DNA from: Candidatus Obscuribacterium magneticum
GTDB lineage: Bacteria; Elusimicrobiota; Elusimicrobia; F11
Length of the DNA: 64,000 bases
NCBI GenBank assembly: GCA_020523905.1
Contig: JAJAPZ010000004.1
Span: forward strand, 35,199 to 99,198
Reading direction: 5' to 3'
The notes beneath the pieces are model-generated. The model made no database searches, was not told the DNA's origin, and worked only from the letters and a program-made list of their open reading frames with translations. The position numbers and the translations under genes are program-made. This document shows, piece after piece, positions 48,719-63,114 of the stretch (position 1 is the stretch's first letter; every line of letters starts with the position of its first letter).

Positions 48719-50959
48719 ATGTACTTTCTTTTCTTCGCCCTCGGCTTCTACGCGACCGTTTCCCAAGTCATCCTCTTTCGCGAACTGGCGGCCGTCTTTC
48801 TCGGCCACGAGATGGCTTTCGGGGTGAGCCTCGCGGCCTGGCTTCTCTGGGGAGGATGGGGCAGCCGAAGCCACCGAAGGACGGACAACCCTCAGCGCAC
48901 ATTTCTCATCACACTTTCCCTCATCGGTATCGTCGTCCCTTTAACGGCCTTGCTTATACGCGTCTCGAAACTCTTCACGCCCGCCGGACACATCCCCGGC
49001 CTCATCCCCTCTCTCTTTTTCCCTTTCCTTCTCATGGCCCTTCCCTGCTGGTTGTTGGGGGCGTCCTTTGCCTTGGGCACAAAGGTCCCCAACAAAAGCG
49101 CCGGTCTCATCTACGCCTTCGAGAGTGCGGGGGCTTTTGCCGGCGGCCTTGCGGTGACGTCCCTATTTCTCGGGCGTTTCCCCGCATTTTTCATCCTCAC
49201 CGCCGGCGGAGCGGCCCTCGTTCTTGCCGTCACGCTTTTTTCTTTTTCCCGCCTTTTCGTCGTCATCCCCGCGAAAGCGGGGATCCAGGCCTTAAACTCT
49301 CTGTCGAAAAGAAAGTTTACGGACTGGATTCCCGCTTTCGCGGGAATGACGGCGCTGGACACTTCACCTAAAACGTTGGTATTAATAATGATGTCGATGA
49401 GCGTTGCGCTCACGATATTCACCCATCGGATCGACGCTCTTGCGCGACGGCTCCAATATAAAGATTACGAGGTCCTCTCACACGTCGAAACCCGCTACGA
49501 GAACAGCACCCTCGTCCAACTGGACAAATTAAACATCCTTTTTCAAAATGGCGTCCTCGCCACCCAGTTCCCGGATCCGGCCGCCGAAGAGGAAATGGTC
49601 CACTGGCCGCTTCTGGCGCACCCCCAACCCCAACGTGTCCTCGCCCTCGGACTCGGCGCTCTCCCCGCTGTCAAAGAAATCTTCAAGCACCCCGTCGGAC
49701 AGCTTGAGGTCGTCGATCCGGACGAACTCGCATTCACTTGGTTAAGCCCTTTTATCAGACCGTTCCAAAAAAGGGCCCTCGACGATGCGCGTTTTAACTA
49801 CAGGCCTGCGGACGGCCGCGCCTGGATCAAGCAACACGCTCAAACCTATGACATCATTCTCCAAACGCTGGGCGATCCCGTGAACGCGCAACGGAACCGT
49901 TTCTTCACAAAGGAATTTTTCACCGCAGCGAAGGAGGCCTTGAAACCGGGCGGCCTTCTCGCTTTCTCCATCAGCTCTTCGGAAAACTATCTTCCGCCGG
50001 AGGTGGCCCTCGCCAACGCCAGTCTTTTCAAAACCGTCGCCGCCGTCTTCCCGCGGGTGGAAATTCTTCACGGATCCAGGATGATCCTTCTGGCGAGTGA
50101 GACCCCCATCTCCCTTGATCCGGCGCTATTGATTGGCCGCTATGAAAAAAGGCATCTCAAGAACAAAATTCTCGTCCCCGAACTTTTACCTTATTCTCTT
50201 CTGCCGGAACGCCGCTCGGCCGCCAAAAAAAGAATCGAAGAATTCCCCCGCGCCCCCGTGAACAGCGATCTCTCTCCGATCTCCCATGTCCTGGTGTGGC
50301 GCGTGTGGTTGGCGAAATTTATCGCGCCGATTTATTTTCTCGGCCCCCTCATCATTGTCTTCATTTTGGCCTGGATGACCTCCCGCGTGTGGCGCATTCG
50401 CCGGGATTGGGCTCGGCACAAGAGCGAACTTCTCCTCTTTTCAATGGGCTTCTCCGGCATGATCCTGGAGGTCGCCATCCTTCTTCTGTTCCAAGCCCTC
50501 TCCGGCGCCCTTTACTGGCAGATGGGGCTTCTGTTCTCGTCCTTCATGCTCGGCCTCGCTGGGGGGAGCGGCCTTTCGGCCAAAGTGACCTGGAATAAAC
50601 CGTCCCTTCTTCTCAACGGATTGACCTTGAGCCTTGGCGCCTATTCATTCGCCGGGTGGTTTCTCATTCAGAAGACTTCCTTCCTGCCGGAGAGCGCTTT
50701 GGGCTTCTGTATGGGCCTTTTTATTCCTGGGGTAATGATCGGGGCGGCTTATCCGATCGCTGCCCAGATCGAAGCCGGCCGGGCGGCTCAATTATACGCG
50801 GCGGATTTATGGGGATCGGCGCTGGGGGCTTTCCTGGCGGGGTCCTGCTTGATTCCTCTGTTGGGTCAACCGACGACTTTTCTTGTCAGCGGGTTGGCCC
50901 TCGTGGGTTCGGTGTTTATCGCCGGGGGGATGTCGGCTCTTCGAAAACGTCCGTCGTAA
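48719..50959 (+). CDS. Membrane spermidine-synthase-like protein (in-frame repeat insertion)
   Basis: 746 residues: ~6 helices, a spermidine-synthase-like Rossmann domain (RVLALGLGALPAVKEIF, VVDPDEL), then ~6 helices. The catalytic pair DSTDP of aminopropyltransferases reads QTLGDP here, so the first acid is missing and polyamine synthesis is doubtful. Residues ~181-211 (VVIPAKAGIQ...WIPAFAGMT) come from a 91-bp palindromic repeat inserted without breaking the frame between helices and the domain. Family known as fused-MFS spermidine synthase-like, role unestablished. Confidence 0.85.
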   Translation: MYFLFFALGFYATVSQVILFRELAAVFLGHEMAFGVSLAAWLLWGGWGSRSHRRTDNPQRTFLITLSLIGIVVPLTALLIRVSKLFTPAGHIPGLIPSLFFPFLLMALPCWLLGASFALGTKVPNKSAGLIYAFESAGAFAGGLAVTSLFLGRFPAFFILTAGGAALVLAVTLFSFSRLFVVIPAKAGIQALNSLSKRKFTDWIPAFAGMTALDTSPKTLVLIMMSMSVALTIFTHRIDALARRLQYKDYEVLSHVETRYENSTLVQLDKLNILFQNGVLATQFPDPAAEEEMVHWPLLAHPQPQRVLALGLGALPAVKEIFKHPVGQLEVVDPDELAFTWLSPFIRPFQKRALDDARFNYRPADGRAWIKQHAQTYDIILQTLGDPVNAQRNRFFTKEFFTAAKEALKPGGLLAFSISSSENYLPPEVALANASLFKTVAAVFPRVEILHGSRMILLASETPISLDPALLIGRYEKRHLKNKILVPELLPYSLLPERRSAAKKRIEEFPRAPVNSDLSPISHVLVWRVWLAKFIAPIYFLGPLIIVFILAWMTSRVWRIRRDWARHKSELLLFSMGFSGMILEVAILLLFQALSGALYWQMGLLFSSFMLGLAGGSGLSAKVTWNKPSLLLNGLTLSLGAYSFAGWFLIQKTSFLPESALGFCMGLFIPGVMIGAAYPIAAQIEAGRAAQLYAADLWGSALGAFLAGSCLIPLLGQPTTFLVSGLALVGSVFIAGGMSALRKRPS
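49261..49351. repeat. Dispersed palindromic repeat inside a coding sequence
   Basis: CGTCATCCCCGCGAAAGCGG.. arm (49261-49286) facing GGATTCCCGCTTTCGCGGGA.. (49326-49351). Translation gives VIPAKAGIQ and WIPAFAGMT, the hallmark peptides of this repeat. Confidence 0.92.
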
Positions 50960-52430
50960 AGACGCTTAAAGTGACATCGGACCCTTTCCAGCAATCGGGG
51001 GGAAGCCCGGCTTTCTGCGAGCAAAGTTCCGACATGAATTCCTCCTTAACGGGGATTTGTTCCCACACCTGAGGAAGGAAAAGGCCCGAGTGAAACCCTT
51101 GCCGCACAACGACGCCGTGTTTGCCGGGGACGATCTCCGTGTGATTTTTAATGCGTTCGGGGGGCGAGAGGATCGAAATTTCGATATGGACAGCCTCCAA
51201 TTCCTTCTTCTCCAGCGGCCGGAAGCGCGGATCCCGGAAGGCGGCCTCCCGGGCGAACGCCCGAACGGCTTCCAAAAGAGCGCTCCGCGGTTCCGTCGTC
51301 CCGATGCAGCCACGCAGGCGTTTATTTAGGGTTAGCGTCACAAAAACCGCCGCGGGAAGGTTCAACGCCGGCGTATTGGATAAGGCCATCGGCTGATAAT
51401 CCTTCCCGTCCAATCCTTCTTTGATCGACTGACGGGCCTGGGTCAGTAAATACTTCTTGTTTTCATCCTTCAGCGGAAACCCTTTTGGAACGCGAGAGGG
51501 GCCTTTCACCAAAGCCACCGCCGCATAGCCGACGGCACGGCTGGTGTCTCCCACTTCCGGGACCTCTCCGGAATTGGTGGTGTGGAGCTCGACCGCCCGA
51601 TTGGCTCCCAATTCGAGGGCCGCATACAGCCCTGTCAAAAGCGCCGCATCGCCGCACAAGGTGCACGCCAGCGCCTTCTCGCCCCGGGCCATGAGGGTCT
51701 GGGACGTCATCAGGAAAAACTCAGGGTCCATCCGCTCCAGAGAACAGATCGTCGTTTGATCGACCCGGCGGGCCAGATCGGACGAGGGATAATGAGAGAG
51801 GTCCGAGGAAATGACCAGAGCGACCTTCCGGCCGCGTATGGCGCCCGCAATGGCCTCCCCGACCTCCCGGCAGACTTTCAAATCGTCGTTGTTCATGAGG
51901 ATCGGGACGATTTTAAAATCCGCCAAAACTTTCTGGAGGAAGGGCAGCTGAACTTCGAGGGAGTGCTCCGGCTCGTGGGGCCGCGTGGAATCCTCAATCA
52001 GCTTTGACTGGGCAAGGATCTTTGCCGCCAGCTCTTCATCGATCGGGATTTTTCCCAGCGGGGTGGCAAAGCTGCCCTTGGCCCACACGGCCGCTCCCTT
52101 GATCGGGACCTGATGGGAAGGCCCCAACAGAACAACGGTTTTAACGTCTTTCCCGAGTCTTTTATAGCTGTAGGCGGCGGTCGGTCCGGAATAAACATAA
52201 CCGGCATGGGGAACAAGGAGGGCGACGAGATCCCCCTGAAGGGGCGGCGGATTCGCCTGGGCCAAATATTGGTCCACCATCTGGTTGATGGTGTTGGCAT
52301 CGCCGGGATAGAAGGAGCCCGCCACCACCGGCGGTCGGTCAACGCCATCAGAAGAAGTCGGGAAGCCCAGCCATGCCATGAGGAAAACCCCCAGCCCGTA
52401 TTTTATCCCATTCCTAAGACGATAGCACAT
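50916..52430 (-). CDS. AmmeMemoRadiSam system proteins B and A fused (MEMO1 + AMMECR1)
   Basis: 504 residues. Residues ~30-320: MEMO domain (LVPHAGYVYSGPTAAYSY, GPSHQVP, SSDLSHYP, CTLCGDAALLTG), with His/Cys positions matching the metal site of human MEMO1. Residues ~330-500: AMMECR1 domain (LRGCIGTTEPRSALLEAV, FRDPRFRPLEKKELEAVH). N-terminal hydrophobic segment suggests export or anchoring. Immediately upstream of the radical SAM partner in transcription order: 9 bp after it. The three families co-occur widely; I know no established biochemical reaction. Confidence 0.94.
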   Translation of the reverse strand: MCYRLRNGIKYGLGVFLMAWLGFPTSSDGVDRPPVVAGSFYPGDANTINQMVDQYLAQANPPPLQGDLVALLVPHAGYVYSGPTAAYSYKRLGKDVKTVVLLGPSHQVPIKGAAVWAKGSFATPLGKIPIDEELAAKILAQSKLIEDSTRPHEPEHSLEVQLPFLQKVLADFKIVPILMNNDDLKVCREVGEAIAGAIRGRKVALVISSDLSHYPSSDLARRVDQTTICSLERMDPEFFLMTSQTLMARGEKALACTLCGDAALLTGLYAALELGANRAVELHTTNSGEVPEVGDTSRAVGYAAVALVKGPSRVPKGFPLKDENKKYLLTQARQSIKEGLDGKDYQPMALSNTPALNLPAAVFVTLTLNKRLRGCIGTTEPRSALLEAVRAFAREAAFRDPRFRPLEKKELEAVHIEISILSPPERIKNHTEIVPGKHGVVVRQGFHSGLFLPQVWEQIPVKEEFMSELCSQKAGLPPDCWKGSDVTLSVFTTDVFEEPTSPRR

Positions 52431-52439
52431 TGGTATGTT

Positions 52440-53675
52440 TCACTCCCATACGCCTGGAATTTTCGTCCCGTCATACGGGCACCGGCCTTCCGGAAGCAGC
52501 CGGTTTTCCAAAACCGCATAACCGTATCGACGCACAAGAATCTGCCGGCACGCGGGGCAATAGGTGGACTCCGCCGGATGCCCCGGGACATTCCCCACGT
52601 AAACATAATGGAGCCCTTCTTTCAGCGCGATCTCACGGGCCCGCTCCAGCGTTTCGACGGGCGTGGAGGGCAGATTCTGCATCCGGTACTGCGGTGAAAA
52701 GCGGGAGAAAAAGAGCGGGGTGTCCGTTCCCAGATTCTCCCGCACCCACACGGCCAGCTTTTTGAAATCCCCCTCCTTATCATTCAGCGTCGGGACAACC
52801 AAATTCACGATTTCCGTGAGGACGCCATGCTCCTTCAATTCCTTCAGCGTCCGCAGAACATATTTTAATTCTCCTCCCACCGTGTTCCGGTAGAACCTTT
52901 CATCGAAACCTTTGAGGTCGATCTTGATGACGTCAAAATAGGGCGCCAATTCGGCCAAGGGTCGGGGCTCAATATAACCCGCCGAAACCATCACGTTTTT
53001 AAGGCCCTTGGCTTTGGCCAGCCGGGCGGTTTCCAGCATATATTCAAAAAAGACAACGGGTTCGGAATAGGTGTAGGCAATGGACCGGCAGCGGGTCGCC
53101 AGGGCGGCGTCCACCACCTCCTGGGGTGTAAGGGTTGAAACGTCGTCTTGCCGAAGCCGGGCGGTGGCCTGGCCGCCCTCAACGCCCACGATTTCCAACC
53201 CCCGGGGCACAAGCGTTTTACCCGGCGCTTGCTCCGGATACGACTGGGAAATCTCCCAATTCTGGCAGAAGGCGCATTTCAAGTTGCAGCCCATCGTCGC
53301 CAGTGAGTAAATCCACGATCCGGGAAGAAGGTGAAAAACCGGTTTCTTCTCAATGGGATCGATGTGGACGGAAACCGGGTGACCATAAACCAGCGTGACC
53401 ATTCGCCCGCCATGATTCATCCGCACCCGGCAGCGCCCGCGCGCCCCTTCGGGCAAAAAGCACTCAAACGGACAAAGGTGGCACTGGACCCCCGCACACA
53501 CGGTGTGCCAATAGCGCGCCTCCTTCACCGATGGGTTGGAGACGGAAAGAAGCGACGAAAAGGTCGCCGGTGGAGGGGTGCGGGAGATCAACCATGCCGC
53601 GGCAAAAGCCGCCCCTTCCACAGCGACGGCCGTGGAGATAAAAAAAACTATCTGTAACCATCGAAGCTTAACCAT
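52440..53675 (-). CDS. amrS: AmmeMemoRadiSam system radical SAM enzyme
   Basis: 411 residues. N-terminal membrane helix (about residues 7-30), CHLCPFECFLPEGARGRCRV (four Cys), radical-SAM motif CNLKCAFCQNWEIS near residue 130, then a C-terminal CPAC...CPYDG zinc/iron knot. Homologous to pyruvate-formate-lyase-activating-like proteins. An exported or membrane-anchored form matches its MEMO/AMMECR1 partner. Confidence 0.94.
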   Translation of the reverse strand: MVKLRWLQIVFFISTAVAVEGAAFAAAWLISRTPPPATFSSLLSVSNPSVKEARYWHTVCAGVQCHLCPFECFLPEGARGRCRVRMNHGGRMVTLVYGHPVSVHIDPIEKKPVFHLLPGSWIYSLATMGCNLKCAFCQNWEISQSYPEQAPGKTLVPRGLEIVGVEGGQATARLRQDDVSTLTPQEVVDAALATRCRSIAYTYSEPVVFFEYMLETARLAKAKGLKNVMVSAGYIEPRPLAELAPYFDVIKIDLKGFDERFYRNTVGGELKYVLRTLKELKEHGVLTEIVNLVVPTLNDKEGDFKKLAVWVRENLGTDTPLFFSRFSPQYRMQNLPSTPVETLERAREIALKEGLHYVYVGNVPGHPAESTYCPACRQILVRRYGYAVLENRLLPEGRCPYDGTKIPGVWE

Positions 53676-54756: not shown

Positions 54757-57700
54757 TTATGCGTTGATTAAGATTTTCCGGGCGCGTTCGATGCGGTCCG
54801 ACCAATCGATGGATTGGATGACGACCGCCTGATTGAGGAGGGTGAAGAGAATCAAGATCAACTTTCGATGGAGAATGGAGTCGGCCGAAAGCCCCGTTGT
54901 GTCGGGTCGCAAATGAGGAGGCAGGAAAAGTTGATAAGAATCGAAAACGTTAAACGGCTCATGGCCGACGATCAACTCCTCGAGGTTCCCCAACGAAAAG
55001 GAATGATCCTGTGAATCCACCAATTGATTGTACACGGCCGGCCCCCACACAAAATGGTCCCGCCCCACCCGGCGCTGGACACGTTCTTTTAAATCCTCTG
55101 AACCCATGATAAATAACCCGGCTCCTCCGGCTTCCTTAAGGCCGGCGGCGATTTCAGAGGCGACGTCCTCCAACTTCTTTTCCGAAGCTCCTGGCTGTCG
55201 CAACAAACCCGCATCCAAAACGGTGATGGCCAGAGGTTTTGTCCCAAGTGCCGCATCCTGTGGCCGGCCATTTTGAAGCGCAGCCAAGGCTTCCTCCAAC
55301 TTGATGACGTCAATGGGGGCGTTCTCGGGGCCGGTGAAATCCGGCCGATCAACACTTTCCAAACCTCTGACCGGCGACCCCAGAACGCGGTCAAGCCCCC
55401 GAGCCACCCGAGAGGGATTCCCCCCTCTAAGACCTGATTGCGTTGTCACAAGAGCTTGGGCCAGTTTCCTTTCCGGGGAACCTGGAGGATTCTGTTTTGA
55501 TGGCATGCGAGGAGGCCTTCGTAACAAAGAAGGGGGGAAATACTTCAACAGCCCGAACATCCCCAGAATCACCGCCACACCGCCGCAGACGGGAAAACCC
55601 GTATTCGTGAGGACGACTCCGACCAAAACGGTCGGAATCGACAGATCCGAATACAACTGAACCGATCCGCTCGACCCCCCGGATGGTTCTTTCAAAACCA
55701 ACCTGAGCTCGCCTTGCACCTCGATGACTTCGAGTTCCGCCCGCCTCTTTACGGCATCGGCCTCTGTTACCAGCGTTAATGTATCTGACGTGAGGGATTC
55801 AAAAATCCGGATATGACCTCCATATTCTCTCGCTTCAGCGCGAATTTGAGCAAGAATGGGGTCCTCTGGCGCTGTGGGAGGGCGATAATTGATTTTAACT
55901 CCATCTGACCCGACGTCCAGAGACAGCCGCTTCTCCGAGACGGCTCTGAGCGCTTCGGTCAAATCCACTGTGATGGGCTGATTGGACAAGACGAGAACCA
56001 CCGGCACCCGCCCGCTATTTTCTCTGGCCAACGCATCCAGAAATTCCACCGGCACGAACTTTTGGAGCACGAGAATTGGTCCTCCCTTCATCATCAGAGG
56101 ACGTAAAACACCTAAATCGACGAGCCCGGATACTTCAGCGCCGCGGATCGAGCCAAAAAGCACTCGCTCGTGGATGTCAAGGGAGGGAACCTGTTTATAA
56201 ACTGTACCTTCTCCTTTATTGGTGACTTCTCCAATAAAGCTCCATTGCTCGGCCGATGTCATTTCTCTGACATGGTCGGGCAACGCACCTTCACTCTCTG
56301 GCCCCGGCATCTCTTCGCGGGCCAAAGCAGCGCGGAAAAGTGGGGGCTCTTTCGGCACCAGCCATATCGCCGGTTTTTCATCCCCCGTCTCCACGAGAAC
56401 AGCTTTCAAATAATCCCGAAATTTCTGCAGTTGAAGAGGACTCAGTTCCCTCTTGAGTTCGTCCCGACCGGCAAAAAGCCTGTGAGGAAGGTCGACCGTC
56501 ATCTCCCGCTTCCCTTCCAATAGGGCCTGTTTAATGACGTCATTTCGCACGCGATCCCCCAAATCCACCACCTTCCAAACAGGATACCCCTGCCTTTTTT
56601 CCATGAGCTGACGCCCCACTTCCGGATCGTTATTCATTTCAGAGTAATCTCTGGCATCATAACGCTCCCACAAGAGCCGATCGGGATTAAAAATGAGCAC
56701 GAACTTCTTTTCAATGCCTCCTTCGCCGTTGGGCATCACATCAGAGCCCGGTTTTGGAGAAGGAATACGCAAATCCGCGGGCCACGCCAGCCCAACGTCC
56801 GCCACCTTATCAACCACGACCACAGGGGATCCTTTATCGGCAGAAATCTCATAATTTAGACACCCTAACGCCATATCTTTACTCACCGAAACTCTGATCT
56901 TTTGATCAGAGGCTTCCTCTTTTTTTCCGACGGCGGTTTTGGGTATTTCCAACACCTGACCGATCTTCTTTGACCACTGGTTCACCACGTTCACTTGAGC
57001 TCGCTTTCCGGCCCTCTGGACAGCGAACTCCCGGATAAAAAATCTGCCTTCAACATAACTGACGGTGAGCTGATAAAGATGCCCCCCGTCCTCAATCCAA
57101 ACCTCGCCCGTCAACCTTTCATTAAGAACCTCCCTCATCGGTCCCAACACTTCAATAGACTCATCCTTCCTGAGCTTCCGCGGAACAAGTTTCTGAATAA
57201 AGGTTCCATTGAGAGAACTCTTATCCACGACCTCCAGCCGCGCAGGGAGGCCCGCCGCCGCCTCCGGCGGCAACACTTTCAACGTCATATGGGAACTGGA
57301 AAGCAGGGGGTCAGTCCACTCCTGCCGATAACTCATCTGTCCGGGACTTGCCTCCACGCGGCCGATAAACACTTCTTGACCTACAGGAAATCGCTGAGGA
57401 GCCTCCACCGGTTCCAGATCGCTTGAGCGAAATCGCTGGATGAAAAACTGACCCCCACCACTCGGACCGAGGGCCACGCGGTACCGACAACTTCCAGCCG
57501 CAATCCACCGCACCTCCTCCAGCGATTCAACGGCTCTAAAGCCCGTCGGGCGGGCGTCCTTGAGATTGTGATTTCCAACCTCATACTCCTCATACCGATA
57601 CGTACGCTGATGATTAAAGAGATTCCCTGAAAGGCTGCTTTCCTCTGAAGGCAACCGGTTTCTCATGATCACGCGTCGGAAAAAAGAATCCGTCCGCTGC

Positions 57701-60700
57701 GGTTTGTCTTCGACTTTTGATCCAACCATCGTTCCCGATCCAAAAAAAGCGGGATCGTCGTACATCTCCAGGGGATTGATGCCGTATAAATCCAAAGCCT
57801 CCTCGATGGGAACCTGGGGTCTTAAAGATCGACTCATGAATCGCTGGGATGGATCCAGACGCTTAAGTTGGATCTTGATTTGTCCTTGCCGGGTCCGGAC
57901 CGCCCGAAAAGAAAAAAGTGGCTGTCTATTCATAGACACCACGCGCTCGTCTTGAGGCGGGGTCGGAGCGGAATGACCCCATCCAAACCATCCTCTTCCC
58001 TTCGGCGGCTCGATTCGATAATCAACATCGCCGGGCCCTTCGACGGTGATGTCCGGCGTCCCTCCTTCCTCTCTTTCCCTCACCTTCAAAACAAAACGAA
58101 CATTCGCTTCATCCGGACCGATCTGGACATAAACTTGATCGGCAACGAGATCGTCGGTTTCCTCCCCACCAGCAAGCTCGCGTTTCTCAAAAAGCCGCAC
58201 CAGGGAGGCGGGCATAAACCACGGAAGGGCAACGAATATCGCGGTGGCCCAGATCCACCCGATCCCGTGGTGGGCTCCCAACGACGGAAACAGAAGCGTC
58301 CCCACATAAGGGACCACGACAACAGCCAACGCTACAATCAAAACCTTCTTAAGAAATGCGTTCATTCCCGGCAAAAACACCCCACCTCCCCCCTGATTGG
58401 TAGGAGGTGTTTTCTGAATACGGCCTTGAGGTCCATCATCGGGTGCGACGTCTTTTGTCAGCCTTAAAAATTCTTCGATGGGGATGATTCCTCTAGTCGG
58501 AAATTTGACGCCGAATTTCTCAAAGAGGGGCTTGGGGTCGGGAACGCCTCCAACCAATATTTTTTTCTTTTGGTTAACGCCATGCCTTTGTGCCAAGAAC
58601 CGAACGACCTTGACGTATTGCTCCACCAGGACTCGGTCCAAGTCATCGGGGTTTACAACGCCAAACTGCTTGGCGAAGGCGGGCGTCAGAGGGGCCTTCG
58701 ACAGAGCCAAATGGAGGACTCCTGATTCTTCGGTGGCAGCGCCTTCCAACAACGCCCCAACAAACATCGGCTGATGGGGGGTGAATTCCAATAAATCAGC
58801 CATTTCCGCGGATTGCGTTTCTGTCAAACCGGCACGAGTGACAGGCCCGCTCTCGTGGTGGTGAACATACGTGCCCCATTTATTCCCCTCCAACCTATCC
58901 ACTTGATGCGGATGAGAATAAAATTGGAATCGGCCGCTCGGCTCTAACTGCGCATTAAAAATAACACAACGACCGAGGCCGGTGGCCAGCCGCGCGTCCA
59001 TATTGAGCTCAATCATGACTTGCTCGATCCCGACGCCGCCCAATAACTTTTTTAACCGGGACAAGACGGCCTTGGCCAGTGTGAGCTGGACGGTGCGATC
59101 CCTGTTCGCCGGATCGATTCCCTCATCGTCAAAGAAATAGGGATAACTCTTCTTTTCGTGCACGACATTGTGTTTTTTGACGTCCTTACCGCGCGGTCCC
59201 ATGGCGATGGCTCTCCACGCCATCCACGCCAAGGGGGAGGTCGGCGCCATCCTCCAAACTTTCATGAATGTCCTCGTCCACCGGAGGACCTGAGAAGAGA
59301 AAGCCTCTTCGCTGATGGGGGCGAATCCAGTTTGAGTATTGAATTCCACTGGAACGCTGTCGGATATCAATAGTCGGGTATCCTCCATCTGACCAAACTG
59401 TTTTGGCACGATGGCTCGACGCGCTTGCTGTTGGACCCACCATTGAACATAAGGAATATCCCACCGGCCCCACAAAAAGGCGCGGTTAATCTGGCCGGCC
59501 GGATCTTTGGTGTCATCGGCCGGTTCGGTGATCTGGGAATATAGAACGTCATGAATAGTAACGGGTGTCTGCAGGGCCGCCATTAATTTGGCCTCCAACG
59601 GGAACCGGTGAACAGCCGATAGAGCTCTTTGATAGGGGCGATCCGAGACACCCCACAAGCGAGCGAGAGGGCCCAAAGTCTGGGATATATCAATAAGGCT
59701 CGGCCTCCCCTCTGACGTTGGAGGCGCCATGGTCTCGGCCAGAGTGTCCAATAATTCATAAAGCGCCGGTTCTCGCTTCTTGGAAACGTGAAAGAATCCC
59801 TTCCGGCTTTTAAATTCATCCACGGGTGAAACCGACCACAATTGAAGCATTCGGCACTCCTCGCCCTTACCATTTTCAAAAAAAGTGTTTTTAAGGATGC
59901 CTGGCCCGCCGTGGAAATCACCCCGGTAGGCCTCCGTGGTCATCGTTAAAGACACCGGATGGCTGTTAAATTGGGACAACGGAGGAGCGGGATCAAGATA
60001 ATAACCTTCGCCGACGACCGATCGCGCCAGCCAGGTGCTCAATCGACGCAATCCTTTTTTAAATACGGCCTTCTGTTTTAATGAGGGTTTAATTTTCCCC
60101 TTCAAAAAGTCATACATCTGCCGATCGCGTTCCTGCAATTGGATCGCTTTAAACGAGGCCTCCAGTTCATCCGCTTCCGCCACCAGAATAACATCCGCTT
60201 CGTCTGCGCCCAACACGTCAGCGAACTGAGGGGTCAGCTTCGGATCCGGATGGTAATGAGTCATTGTTTCGACGACGGGTTGCTGAACGGTAATAAATAA
60301 TCCGCGGTCACGCATCTTTTGAACCATGTCTCGATGGGCGATATACAAAGGACCCGAAAGTTGAATGGCATCCAACCGGCTCATAAGCGCGTCGCCGGAC
60401 GTAACCGCTTTCAAAAGGTTTTCTTCTGAAATGGATATACCGATCCACTTGAGTCCGCCGACGCCCTCCGCTTTGAGATTCGACAATTCCTCCAAGATCT
60501 TATCGCCCCGGACGACCCGAAGAGATGGATTTTCCAAATACAATACATCGACTCTCCCCAAAAGGCCCGCACTTCTCTGGAGTGAACGCCGCAGATCGCC
60601 CGGCGAAAAATCCACATTCACCATCCTATTCTGGTTCTCCCCGCATTTCGTCGCCACAATCGCAGAGGACAAAACCTGAGGATGGGCGCGCAGAAAATCG

Positions 60701-62949
60701 CCCAACATTTTCTCTCCCCCCGCATGGGACGGTGACGTATCCACCATGAACAACCCCTTTGGATCCACGAAGGGTTCCATCATGGTGTCCACAAAGTTCT
60801 TTATATCGACACCGTGAGGTCTGTATTTTCGATAGTCGTCAAATTTGGCGGTTGAAACGCCTATCCGATTCAATCCCTTTGCCCACTCCACAAGCCGCGG
60901 AGGTTGGATTCCCTCATTCGCCCCTTTTGCCTCGGCTCGCCGGGGACGGGAAAAAAATTGAAAATTCGCCATCGCTCCTCTTGGACTTGTCGTTTGACTC
61001 CTCGAGTTAAGCGAAAGGATTGGCACGGCAGAGAGGTGCCATCCAAAGACGGAAAAGAAGATATCGCGAATCTGAATGATCTTTTCATGAACCCGGTGAA
61101 TAAGGTTGCCCCAACTCTCCAGCCACCAGCGCAGGGCGGATCTTTGGTCCGACCGACGGCTTCCCGCGACGCCAGAAAATCCGCGGACCCGGGCAATGAC
61201 GTTATCAATGGCGCCCATCAAGGCGACGCGAAGGCGCGGCTCGGTGAGATGGGTATGGGTCGGGCTTAAAAACAATTCCTCACCGACGAAGAGTTTCTCC
61301 AACGGCGTTTTCTCCCGGGAAAAGACGGATAGATAGGCGGAGCCGGAGGTGCTGTCCACCCTGGTGATCTTGGGGGCCACGATGAGATAGCCGATGTCCT
61401 TTTCCCGCAAGCGCTGGGCGATCTCCGGCGTGTGGAAGCCGCCGGTGACGAGAATGCGACATAATTGCAGATTGCAAATTACAGATTGCAAATTGAATAT
61501 GGAGCTCAACATTAACTGACTGCGGAGGTCGGCCTCTTCGTAGAATGATTCAAAAGAAGCCAATCGATCGTCTTTCCGGCGAAAGCCGGAATCCAAGTTC
61601 AATTGACGGCCTGGATCCCGGCTTGCGCCGGGATGACGGACATTCTTGTATTCCGCCCATTCCTCCGGCGTCAGCTCGAACTTTATCAGCTTCCCGACCA
61701 GATGGAGATAGGTCGACGCTTCGGTGAGCCGCTTTTCCTTGGGCGTTTTGGCCAACTCGTCCAAAATCCCTTTTTCCCACCGAGCGACATCGTTCAAGAG
61801 GGTGTCGGATTTGATCCCATCCGACAAAAGGACGTAGCGGATGTATTCATCAAACTGGGGCGCCTGCCGCAGCGAGACCCCCTTTCTCTGGCACAAATCC
61901 TTAAATGCCCGATAAAAATCGGTATAGGGGATCTTCCCCAACCGATAGCTGAGGCTTCGGGTTAACAACTCATTAAACTCCGCCGGGGAGAGGACTCTCG
62001 CCAATCTCTCGATCACCCGGCGGCGCTCCCTCTCCACTTGGGCGAAGTCCAGCCGGGACTCCATATCGAAGGCTTCCAAAAACTGATCGATCATCAAGCT
62101 GGCCGGTTCTTGAAAGGCAACCAGCCTCTTAAGATAGGCTCCCAATCCCATCTCGCCTTTCCGATAAGCGTCCTGAAGGGCATCAAACTCCTTAAGAGAG
62201 GCATTAAAGAATCTTTCTTTATCGGCCTTCAATCTCCGGCCGGCCTCAGCCCACTGACGCTTAACACGAGGGAGCCGGGCCTCGGAATCGCGATAGGCTT
62301 TTACGTTGGCGGCATGATGTTCCCGGCTATCCACGCCGACAAAAAGGGGCGGCGCCTGGGGCGAATTGATCCCGACGAAGGACGGCGCGGAGAGGAGATT
62401 TTTTTGAAGGAACAAATCGGTGACATCCCGCACAATTTGCTTCTCTTGATAAGAGCGGAAGGGAGCGAAGTCGAACGCCTCAAAAGCCCCTTCCACGCCC
62501 ACCACACCCACCTGTTTCGTCTCCAACAAGTTCTGAAGCACCGCCGCGATGTTCCCCTGCGCTTCGGGATTTAAGTGCACGTCTTGAATCAACACGACGG
62601 CCGGGCCGTTTCCTCTTTTCGACTCGACCACCTCTTTAACAGAGGCGTTTTGGAAAGGAACCGCCGCCACCAGGGTTTGAAGGGATCCTTTCTTCAAGGG
62701 CCTGGCGTGAGGCGAAACATCTCGCGAAACGGATGGCCATTGTCCGAGGAGGGCTTGTGTTGGCGGGATATGGGATGGAGATATCGCGGTGGGGAGGGCC
62801 GCCAGCATCGGACGGCCCGTTTCGGGGGCGCCTCTTTTTTGCTGTCGCTCCTTCCAAACAGTCGACTCGGCGATGGATCCGAGCGCCACCTGGGTGCACA
62901 AAAGGAACGATAAGGCCAGCGACAAACTTTTGTTAAGAACAGAGATCAT
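54757..62949 (-). CDS. Giant exported multidomain protein (ChaN/TraB-like, degenerate aldo-keto reductase, FHA)
   Basis: 2730 residues from ATG 62949 (GTG 63003 is an upstream alternative; neither has a good ribosome site, but ATG gives the signal peptide LSLALSFLLCTQVALGS). Domains as I read them: ~115-540 ChaN/TraB-like fold (VLIQDVHLNPEAQGNI, VGVEGAFEAFD, ILVTGGFHTPEI) interrupted by two repeat insertions; ~690-945 aldo-keto reductase-like barrel (DTSPSHAGGE at 737-746, VATKCG with Lys768, YLENPSLR at 804-811); ~950-1500 unknown; TM at ~1535-1580; ~1855-1920 FHA domain (GQEVFIGR, SSHMTL, DKSSLNGTFI); another TM pair near 2435-2470; ~2520-2730 unknown C-terminal domain. Catalytic Tyr and His of the AKR site are His742 and Glu806, so it is probably inactive. 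Very large proteins of this kind are known from Omnitrophota; role unknown. Confidence 0.9.
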   Translation of the reverse strand: MISVLNKSLSLALSFLLCTQVALGSIAESTVWKERQQKRGAPETGRPMLAALPTAISPSHIPPTQALLGQWPSVSRDVSPHARPLKKGSLQTLVAAVPFQNASVKEVVESKRGNGPAVVLIQDVHLNPEAQGNIAAVLQNLLETKQVGVVGVEGAFEAFDFAPFRSYQEKQIVRDVTDLFLQKNLLSAPSFVGINSPQAPPLFVGVDSREHHAANVKAYRDSEARLPRVKRQWAEAGRRLKADKERFFNASLKEFDALQDAYRKGEMGLGAYLKRLVAFQEPASLMIDQFLEAFDMESRLDFAQVERERRRVIERLARVLSPAEFNELLTRSLSYRLGKIPYTDFYRAFKDLCQRKGVSLRQAPQFDEYIRYVLLSDGIKSDTLLNDVARWEKGILDELAKTPKEKRLTEASTYLHLVGKLIKFELTPEEWAEYKNVRHPGASRDPGRQLNLDSGFRRKDDRLASFESFYEEADLRSQLMLSSIFNLQSVICNLQLCRILVTGGFHTPEIAQRLREKDIGYLIVAPKITRVDSTSGSAYLSVFSREKTPLEKLFVGEELFLSPTHTHLTEPRLRVALMGAIDNVIARVRGFSGVAGSRRSDQRSALRWWLESWGNLIHRVHEKIIQIRDIFFSVFGWHLSAVPILSLNSRSQTTSPRGAMANFQFFSRPRRAEAKGANEGIQPPRLVEWAKGLNRIGVSTAKFDDYRKYRPHGVDIKNFVDTMMEPFVDPKGLFMVDTSPSHAGGEKMLGDFLRAHPQVLSSAIVATKCGENQNRMVNVDFSPGDLRRSLQRSAGLLGRVDVLYLENPSLRVVRGDKILEELSNLKAEGVGGLKWIGISISEENLLKAVTSGDALMSRLDAIQLSGPLYIAHRDMVQKMRDRGLFITVQQPVVETMTHYHPDPKLTPQFADVLGADEADVILVAEADELEASFKAIQLQERDRQMYDFLKGKIKPSLKQKAVFKKGLRRLSTWLARSVVGEGYYLDPAPPLSQFNSHPVSLTMTTEAYRGDFHGGPGILKNTFFENGKGEECRMLQLWSVSPVDEFKSRKGFFHVSKKREPALYELLDTLAETMAPPTSEGRPSLIDISQTLGPLARLWGVSDRPYQRALSAVHRFPLEAKLMAALQTPVTIHDVLYSQITEPADDTKDPAGQINRAFLWGRWDIPYVQWWVQQQARRAIVPKQFGQMEDTRLLISDSVPVEFNTQTGFAPISEEAFSSQVLRWTRTFMKVWRMAPTSPLAWMAWRAIAMGPRGKDVKKHNVVHEKKSYPYFFDDEGIDPANRDRTVQLTLAKAVLSRLKKLLGGVGIEQVMIELNMDARLATGLGRCVIFNAQLEPSGRFQFYSHPHQVDRLEGNKWGTYVHHHESGPVTRAGLTETQSAEMADLLEFTPHQPMFVGALLEGAATEESGVLHLALSKAPLTPAFAKQFGVVNPDDLDRVLVEQYVKVVRFLAQRHGVNQKKKILVGGVPDPKPLFEKFGVKFPTRGIIPIEEFLRLTKDVAPDDGPQGRIQKTPPTNQGGGGVFLPGMNAFLKKVLIVALAVVVVPYVGTLLFPSLGAHHGIGWIWATAIFVALPWFMPASLVRLFEKRELAGGEETDDLVADQVYVQIGPDEANVRFVLKVREREEGGTPDITVEGPGDVDYRIEPPKGRGWFGWGHSAPTPPQDERVVSMNRQPLFSFRAVRTRQGQIKIQLKRLDPSQRFMSRSLRPQVPIEEALDLYGINPLEMYDDPAFFGSGTMVGSKVEDKPQRTDSFFRRVIMRNRLPSEESSLSGNLFNHQRTYRYEEYEVGNHNLKDARPTGFRAVESLEEVRWIAAGSCRYRVALGPSGGGQFFIQRFRSSDLEPVEAPQRFPVGQEVFIGRVEASPGQMSYRQEWTDPLLSSSHMTLKVLPPEAAAGLPARLEVVDKSSLNGTFIQKLVPRKLRKDESIEVLGPMREVLNERLTGEVWIEDGGHLYQLTVSYVEGRFFIREFAVQRAGKRAQVNVVNQWSKKIGQVLEIPKTAVGKKEEASDQKIRVSVSKDMALGCLNYEISADKGSPVVVVDKVADVGLAWPADLRIPSPKPGSDVMPNGEGGIEKKFVLIFNPDRLLWERYDARDYSEMNNDPEVGRQLMEKRQGYPVWKVVDLGDRVRNDVIKQALLEGKREMTVDLPHRLFAGRDELKRELSPLQLQKFRDYLKAVLVETGDEKPAIWLVPKEPPLFRAALAREEMPGPESEGALPDHVREMTSAEQWSFIGEVTNKGEGTVYKQVPSLDIHERVLFGSIRGAEVSGLVDLGVLRPLMMKGGPILVLQKFVPVEFLDALARENSGRVPVVLVLSNQPITVDLTEALRAVSEKRLSLDVGSDGVKINYRPPTAPEDPILAQIRAEAREYGGHIRIFESLTSDTLTLVTEADAVKRRAELEVIEVQGELRLVLKEPSGGSSGSVQLYSDLSIPTVLVGVVLTNTGFPVCGGVAVILGMFGLLKYFPPSLLRRPPRMPSKQNPPGSPERKLAQALVTTQSGLRGGNPSRVARGLDRVLGSPVRGLESVDRPDFTGPENAPIDVIKLEEALAALQNGRPQDAALGTKPLAITVLDAGLLRQPGASEKKLEDVASEIAAGLKEAGGAGLFIMGSEDLKERVQRRVGRDHFVWGPAVYNQLVDSQDHSFSLGNLEELIVGHEPFNVFDSYQLFLPPHLRPDTTGLSADSILHRKLILILFTLLNQAVVIQSIDWSDRIERARKILINA
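61464..61497. repeat. Tandem CAGATTGCAAATT repeat inside the giant gene
   Basis: 13-bp unit at 61468-61480 and 61482-61494. Translates as FNLQSVICNLQL, interrupting the ChaN-like domain shortly before ILVTGGFHT. Confidence 0.85.
61569..61638. repeat. Dispersed palindromic repeat inside the giant gene
   Basis: CCGGCGAAAGCCGGAATCC facing GGATCCCGGCTTGCGCCGGG, 70 bp. Translates as VRHPGASRDPGRQL...LDSGFRRKDDR, in frame. Confidence 0.9.
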
Positions 62950-63114
62950 AATTTTAATGTAAATAACAGAGGTTTCGATCAGGTTAGGGAGGTAGAAACC
63001 CACTGAAAACCAGATGCCATCAGTTTAATACGGTGGGATTAAGGTTTCATTAACAGATGGTAAACAAGTTGTAAAAAGACGGCGGAATAACGCATTAAAT
63101 TGAGTTTTTGGGGG

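What the first reader, a model, noticed from the sequence alone, without database searches (positions are those of the whole stretch)
54757..62949. 2730-residue exported protein with a dead aldo-keto reductase domain and an FHA domain
Catalytic Tyr to His742 and His to Glu806 with Asp737 and Lys768 kept argue for a binding and not an enzymatic role. FHA (phosphothreonine reader) plus two membrane regions and a ChaN/TraB-like N-terminus in one exported chain is an unusual combination that I have not seen described.
Basis: partly seen in the sequence, partly recalled or inferred. Interest (0 to 1): 0.8.

Follow-up and report, generated by a model that had tools for sequence, protein, structure and literature searches.

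The report
Giant proteins sharing head and tail
The 2,730-residue protein is one of about twenty giant exported proteins in this bacterium that share the same enzyme-like head and a short tail ending in alanine but have unrelated bodies, a family that can take up 8-15% of a genome and gives a first common handle on giant genes whose function is unknown.

Summary
The ORF is real (54757-63003, minus strand; 2,730 aa from the ATG at 62949). The aldo-keto reductase (AKR) domain and its lost Tyr and His are confirmed. The FHA domain is plausible but sub-threshold. The combination is not the main point. Residues ~19-590 are a signal peptide plus a divergent TIKI/ChaN-superfamily hydrolase domain. 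About 19 further genes in the same genome begin with this module, each followed by a different body. The profile finds it in 60 of 295 sampled genomes of the phylum, across two classes; one genome has 28 copies (7.8% of its DNA), another 21 (15%). Only about a dozen residues are conserved across classes; they include the TIKI catalytic set (D141-x-H143, E171, R494, H524; 59 of 59 sequences), so the head looks catalytically intact. Intact members also share a ~60-residue C-terminal tail ending in alanine (29 of 33; P about 1e-27). Bodies are mosaics: AKR is shared with a protein of another family in which all four catalytic residues remain, FHA with one paralogue. The FHA has no detectable Ser/Thr kinase partner. 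A same-family genome is labelled Elusimicrobia, not Omnitrophota. Most likely this is a Sec-exported constant-head, variable-body surface giant; the head's substrate and the tail's role are inferred.

The parts
54757..63003 (-). Whole gene (GTG at 63003, or ATG at 62949 with a typical signal peptide)
62875..62949 (-). Sec-type signal peptide, MISVLNKSLSLALSFLLCTQVALGS; relatives show AxA-type cleavage sites (e.g. FAEA/N, FVEA/S)
   Evidence: sequence
62839..62856 (-). Conserved start of the mature chain, W-x-[ED]-R
   Evidence: W and R invariant in the 22 sequences of A1
61324..62661 (-). TIKI/ChaN-superfamily hydrolase-like domain with a helical insert (residues ~115-560)
62575..62586 (-). 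Catalytic motif 1, QDVH (D141, H143)
   Evidence: D and H invariant in 59/59
62488..62493 (-). Catalytic motif 2, E171-G172
   Evidence: 59/59
61522..61524 (-). Conserved Arg R494
   Evidence: 59/59
61432..61443 (-). Catalytic motif 3, GGFH (H524)
   Evidence: 59/59
61264..61341 (-). End motif of the head, YLSVFSREKTPLEKLFVGEELFL
   Evidence: conserved in A1
61558..61650 (-). Loop of the head carrying an in-frame dispersed palindromic repeat; the same loop carries repeats in several paralogues
54940..61206 (-). Variable body; no detectable counterpart in related genomes apart from the AKR, and within the genome only the FHA-like part of one paralogue
60124..60873 (-). Aldo-keto reductase domain with D755 and K786 kept, Tyr to H760, His to E824
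58198..58344 (-). Membrane hairpin 1 (residues 1554-1602)
   Evidence: hydropathy
57184..57507 (-). FHA-like domain (IGR ... SSSHMTL ... SLNGT), shared with paralogue L039
   Evidence: sub-threshold
55564..55686 (-). Membrane region 2 (residues ~2440-2480)
54760..54939 (-). Family C-terminal tail (last 60 residues, ending ...KILINA)
   Evidence: leave-one-out score 23.3, best decoy 6.2; genome hit E 6e-20 with a profile whose training set includes this tail

Best explanation
This is one member of a large gene family of Sec-exported giant proteins with a constant head and a constant tail around a body that differs in every member. SHOWN: signal peptide; a conserved ~570-residue head whose invariant residues include the TIKI catalytic set; unrelated, mosaic, often multi-pass membrane bodies; a shared C-terminal tail ending in Ala; about 20-28 copies per genome in the genomes counted one by one. 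INFERRED: the head is an active TIKI-type hydrolase (protease or esterase) in the periplasm or at the cell surface, acting in maturation or anchoring of these proteins; the tail is a sorting or processing signal read at the C-terminus; and the bodies, assembled by shuffling captured enzyme and binding domains, are displayed to meet variable partners (host, prey or competitors). In the window protein the captured AKR has lost its catalytic residues and would act as a binding or structural domain.
For: About 20 loci in the same genome match the head at up to 48% identity and nothing else in the chain. The A2 profile matches 60 of 295 phylum genomes, nearly all at the 5' end of long ORFs, in two classes. 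28 genes (93,776 codons, 7.8% of 3.6 Mb) in G001 and 21 (124,991 codons, 15% of 2.5 Mb) in G015. D141, H143, E171, R494 and H524 are identical in 59/59 sequences of both classes and match the 2His/2Glu plus Arg set of a crystallised TIKI endopeptidase (E3900, H3902, E3930, R4001, H4030; PMC6254334), with the same first spacing (30) and 30 against 29 for the second. PF04187 matches 13/22 members. Profile-profile score against 30 true ChaN proteins 31, against 13.5-17.8 for shuffled or reversed controls. AF2 pLDDT 81, pTM 0.77, with EreC, BcR135, ChaN and HopBA1 among weak Foldseek matches. Tail: 29/33 end in Ala, and in the second class 14/18 end in Ala with motifs such as AVRSILAAA. Body mosaicism: AKR shared with L118, FHA with L039.
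Against: The Foldseek matches are individually not significant (E > 0.4), and the Pfam matches examined singly are below the curated cut-off, so the TIKI assignment rests on several weak lines plus the residue pattern. The first acidic residue is Asp here and Glu in the compared enzyme. No substrate or partner is known. Some bodies contain domains usually found in the cytosol (phosphofructokinase, glycogen phosphorylase, AAA, AKR), which sits oddly with export. Tails of L055 and L056 do not fit (they may be frame-shifted), L039 and L076 do not end in Ala, and several other tails do not outrank all decoys.
Confidence: 0.68

Rival explanations
1. One reading: a single exported scaffold protein whose dead AKR and FHA domains bind ligands and phosphothreonine proteins in a signalling role.
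For: AKR catalytic residues really are lost; an FHA-like motif with R, S-x-x-H and NGT is present and shared with one paralogue.
Against: The domain combination is unique to this chain and not conserved; no PF00069 kinase in the genome; the head keeps its catalytic residues in 59/59; FHA is sub-threshold and its model failed.
Confidence: 0.1
2. A polymorphic-toxin-like system: the constant head is a trafficking or processing module and the variable bodies are effectors delivered to other cells.
For: Constant N-terminus with variable remainder, tandem same-strand arrays, a body with an apparently complete subtilase triad, and a TIKI fold that in other systems acts as a protease.
Against: About half of the body pieces scanned had no Pfam match at E <= 0.01; known toxin domains were not found, and immunity genes were not sought systematically; the variable part is not the C-terminus, because a constant tail follows; bodies run to more than 13,000 residues with many membrane segments.
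Confidence: 0.15
3. The head is a ChaN-like haem-binding domain, not an enzyme, and the family is a haem-scavenging surface apparatus.
For: The nearest Pfam family is ChaN; standalone ChaN proteins occur in families f8, f13 and f14 of the class, where no head-bearing gene was detected.
Against: The invariant set includes the Arg and both His/acid pairs of the catalytically active branch; haem would not explain unrelated giant bodies.
Confidence: 0.1
4. Selfish or decaying giant ORFs: domain graveyards kept open by chance or by an unknown bias, with no exported function.
For: Bodies carry few recognisable domains, some degenerate, and dispersed repeats are inserted in frame.
Against: Open frames of up to 13,472 codons without stops, head catalytic residues invariant, and conserved tails after thousands of variable residues show strong purifying selection.
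Confidence: 0.04

Closest known systems
TIKI superfamily (Tiki, TraB/PrgY, ChaN, erythromycin esterases, RRSP)
   Same: Predicted core, DxH / E / R / H constellation with matching spacing, sub-threshold ChaN matches, profile score above controls
   Different: Asp replaces the first Glu; a long helical insert separates the halves; fused to giant variable bodies and a conserved tail
Giant ORFs of Omnitrophota and Elusimicrobiota (PMC10066038, PMC11573180, PMC12057145)
   Same: Length, multiple membrane helices, few annotated domains, enrichment in Elusimicrobiota
   Different: The passages of these papers read here report no common N-terminal enzyme or C-terminal tail; here the giant genes with this head form one family by their ends
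Polymorphic toxin systems (PMC3482391)
   Same: Constant N-terminal trafficking part, highly variable remainder, multigene arrays
   Different: Constant C-terminal tail too; no recognised toxin or immunity module; much larger bodies
Aldo-keto reductases (PF00248; PDB 4exa, L-galactose dehydrogenases)
   Same: About 160 residues of the barrel, Asp and Lys kept
   Different: Catalytic Tyr and His replaced; embedded in an exported giant protein

Membership tests
TIKI superfamily | Catalytic pair of [DE]-x-H on strand 1 and E on strand 2 | tested here: met
   D141-x-H143 and E171 in 59/59, spacing 30; Asp instead of Glu at the first position
TIKI superfamily | C-terminal catalytic His preceded by a conserved basic residue | tested here: met
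   H524 and R494 in 59/59, spacing 30; 29 in the compared enzyme (PMC6254334)
TIKI superfamily | Common parallel beta-sheet core by structure comparison | tested here: inconclusive
   AF2 pLDDT 81; Foldseek lists EreC, BcR135, ChaN and HopBA1 but with E > 0.4
TIKI superfamily | Hydrolase activity | not testable with these tools
   needs biochemistry
ChaN (PF04187) | Score above the Pfam gathering cut-off | tested here: not met
   23.3 bits or less against 27.7 in the members scored singly; no match for the window protein
AKR | Pfam match above cut-off | tested here: met
   30.2 bits against 24
AKR | Catalytic tetrad Asp, Tyr, Lys, His | tested here: not met
   Tyr to His760, His to Glu824; full tetrad in L118
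FHA | Pfam match above cut-off | tested here: not met
   17.1 against 20.7 bits in the genome search, 15.6 as an isolated fragment
FHA | GR, SxxH and NG phosphothreonine-site residues | tested here: met
   IGR, SSSH and NGT in the window; in L039 SxxH and NGT only
FHA | FHA beta-sandwich fold | tested here: inconclusive
   pLDDT 49
Polymorphic toxin system | C-terminal toxin domain with adjacent immunity gene | not tested
   no toxin domain in Pfam scans of own-genome bodies; immunity genes were not sought

The most novel reading that the evidence does not exclude
A phylum-wide display system in which a constant, catalytically active TIKI hydrolase head and a C-terminal Ala tail bracket an exchangeable giant body, so that one export and processing route serves dozens of unrelated surface giants per cell and occupies up to about 15% of the genome; comparable in logic to polymorphic toxins but with both ends constant.
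Probability: 0.4. Interest if true: 0.88.

Novelty: new variant of a known kind. Interest (0 to 1): 0.74.

Why it matters
Giant genes of Elusimicrobiota, Omnitrophota and relatives are among the least understood in bacteria; published surveys report few domains, poor conservation and no assigned function (PMC10066038, PMC11573180). A constant catalytic head and a constant tail turn dozens of apparently unrelated giants per genome into one definable family. They can be found by profile search, their export can be followed with one antibody or tag, and their function can be approached through one small enzyme domain instead of thousands of residues. If the head processes or anchors the giants, its inhibition would affect a class of proteins that takes up to about 15% of a genome.

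Tried and rejected
Pfam and NCBIfam on the full chain found only the AKR and a chance helical match, PAH_ZNF598. phmmer and hmmsearch of the head against PDB sequences gave only chance matches. Foldseek against viral structures: nothing significant, one TraB-like protein at rank 35. hhalign of single-sequence bodies was uninformative. A Smith-Waterman match of the AKR part with L044 (score 69) looked like chance on inspection. AF2 and Foldseek of the FHA segment failed. The idea that all captured enzymes are dead was rejected: the L044 subtilase and L053 phosphofructokinase keep their key residues by motif inspection. Phage or plasmid origin of the head: no match in either collection. No paper found links ChaN/TIKI to these giants; the bioRxiv survey of giant genes and PMC7785019 are not held, so earlier description cannot be excluded.

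Full report
THE OBSERVATION. The AKR domain is real (PF00248 E 3e-7; PDB 4exa E 3e-6), and so are the substitutions Tyr to His760 and His to Glu824 with Asp755 and Lys786 kept. Two membrane regions exist. The FHA domain is likely but not proven: PF00498 reaches 17.1 bits against a cut-off of 20.7, yet this is the best site in the whole genome, and the second best lies inside a paralogue, L039. The two segments align with a score of 62 where 1,000 shuffles reach at most 58. A two-sequence AlphaFold2 model failed (pLDDT 49).

WHAT IT REALLY IS. Searching the genome with the whole protein gave about 20 further places, nearly all matching only residues ~20-590, each at the start of another very long ORF (1,000-12,118 residues). 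The bodies behind these heads show no similarity to the window's body by BLAST, and hardly any to each other. In related genomes the body finds nothing except the AKR part in one protein.

DISTRIBUTION. A profile of 40 heads (A2) matches 60 of 295 genomes sampled across the phylum at E <= 1e-10, in two classes, nearly always at the 5' end of a long ORF. Two genomes counted exhaustively carry 28 genes (G001, complete, 3.6 Mb: 93,776 codons, 7.8% of the genome) and 21 genes (G015, 2.5 Mb: 124,991 codons, 15%). In G015 eight of them lie on the same strand in one region of contig C16; in the window's genome L045 and L051 are adjacent with about 115 bases between. One relative found in named genomes is 'Elusimicrobia bacterium fen_1177'. 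Its genome gives exactly the same hit coordinates and scores as G002, which is in the window's family, so the host is more likely an elusimicrobial lineage than Omnitrophota.

THE HEAD. Aligning 40 heads of one class with 19 of the other leaves few columns conserved in both: D141, H143, E171, G172, R494, G521, G522, H524 and P544 in all 59, and Q140, Q149, N151 and G223 in nearly all. Thirteen of 22 members match PF04187, 'Tiki superfamily, ChaN' (best E 1.4e-5). The members examined singly are below the curated cut-off and the window protein itself does not match, so it is not a ChaN proper. A crystallised TIKI endopeptidase uses E3900, H3902, E3930 and H4030 with a conserved basic residue R4001 (PMC6254334). 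The head has D-x-H, E, R and H in that order with spacings 30 and 30, against 30 and 29. A profile comparison with 30 genuine ChaN proteins of the same phylum scores 31, against 13.5-17.8 for shuffled or reversed controls, and superposes the last His. The AlphaFold2 model is confident (pLDDT 81, pTM 0.77), and among weak Foldseek matches are EreC, BcR135, ChaN and HopBA1, all TIKI-fold structures (E > 0.4, so supportive only). I conclude that the head is a divergent TIKI-superfamily domain with an intact active site. Its substrate is unknown.

THE TAIL. In 33 class-1 members whose stop codon was read, 29 end in alanine, preceded in most by Gln, Ser or Asn (binomial P about 1e-27 against the 8.2% Ala of these proteins). 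The last 60 residues align as '...GLP.dS.LR...hhLLd.Lh.a.P......d.......A..A'. In a leave-one-out test 20 or so of the 33 tails, the window's among them (23.3 against a best decoy of 6.2), outrank all 521 internal 60-mers. In the other class the tails read AVRSILAAA, GIRAILAAA and the like (14 of 18 end in Ala). A tail profile run over four genomes gave strong hits only at the ends of ORFs that carry the head, including one not used for training (G006:C42).

THE BODIES. Pfam finds a subtilase, phosphofructokinase, HEAT repeats, WD40 propellers, AAA and VWA domains, part of a glycogen phosphorylase and a CAAX protease-like segment in sister proteins, mostly each in a different one. Some keep catalytic residues (L044, L053), others do not (window AKR). 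The AKR of the window aligns with that of L118, a head-bearing protein from another bacterial family, directly behind the head and with the full tetrad D, Y, K, H. The FHA is shared with L039, at another distance from the head. Bodies are therefore mosaics. Membrane hairpins recur; the 12,118-residue member has 39 hydrophobic segments.

HOW IT MAY WORK. Shown: export signal, catalytic residues under strict conservation, variable bodies, constant tail. Inferred: Sec export; an active hydrolase head that matures or anchors the giants or acts beside them; a tail read as a C-terminal sorting or processing signal; bodies displayed for variable contacts. A phosphothreonine-reading role is weakened by the absence of any PF00069 kinase in the (71% complete) genome. 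The rivals (signalling scaffold, polymorphic toxin, haem uptake, domain graveyard) are listed with their tests.

WHAT IS KNOWN. Giant ORFs are described for Omnitrophota (PMC10066038), and Elusimicrobiota are among the bacteria richest in huge proteins, with no assigned functions (PMC11573180; also PMC12057145). I found no mention of a shared TIKI head or tail in the passages read or in the searches made. The bioRxiv survey of giant genes could not be read. I therefore rate it a new variant of a known kind (giant surface proteins), with a real chance of being more.

LIMITS. The assembly is 71% complete and 13% contaminated and holds an inverted identical copy of the gene. The occurrence of the head outside this phylum was not tested beyond phage and plasmid collections (none). 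No selection analysis within bodies was possible for lack of close orthologues.

Noticed in passing
window 61558-61650; also L041, L042, L045, L047, L051, L053: A dispersed palindromic DNA repeat (CGTCATCCCGGCGCAAGCCGGGATCCAG ... GGATTCCGGCTTTCGCCGGAA) is inserted in frame in one loop of the head; several paralogues carry related repeats in the same loop.
   Followed up: partly
window 49111-49422, inside the ORF 48719-50959: A similar palindromic repeat (translated IPAKAGIQ...WIPAFAGMT) lies in frame inside a membrane methyltransferase-like (spermidine synthase-type) gene.
   Followed up: no
G000 contig C82 998-9241 and 89958-98201; contig C49 80193-82004 and 102795-104606: Identical inverted copies of giant genes on one contig, most simply fold-back assembly artefacts that may contribute to the 13% contamination estimate.
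   Followed up: no
G015 contig C16, about 113-383 kb: Eight head-bearing giant genes on the same strand in one region, with ORFs up to 13,472 codons.
   Followed up: partly
window 50916-52430 and 52440-53675 (minus): Adjacent genes resembling the MEMO / AMMECR1 / radical SAM 'AmmeMemoRadiSam' set, here with an N-terminal hydrophobic segment on the radical SAM protein.
   Followed up: no
G000:C72 446-586: A 195-codon ORF upstream of paralogue L041 ends in a tail-like match (E 0.02), possibly the 3' remnant of another family member.
   Followed up: no
families f8, f13, f14 of the class (L119-L148): Standalone ChaN proteins of about 300 residues occur where no head-bearing gene was detected.
   Followed up: partly
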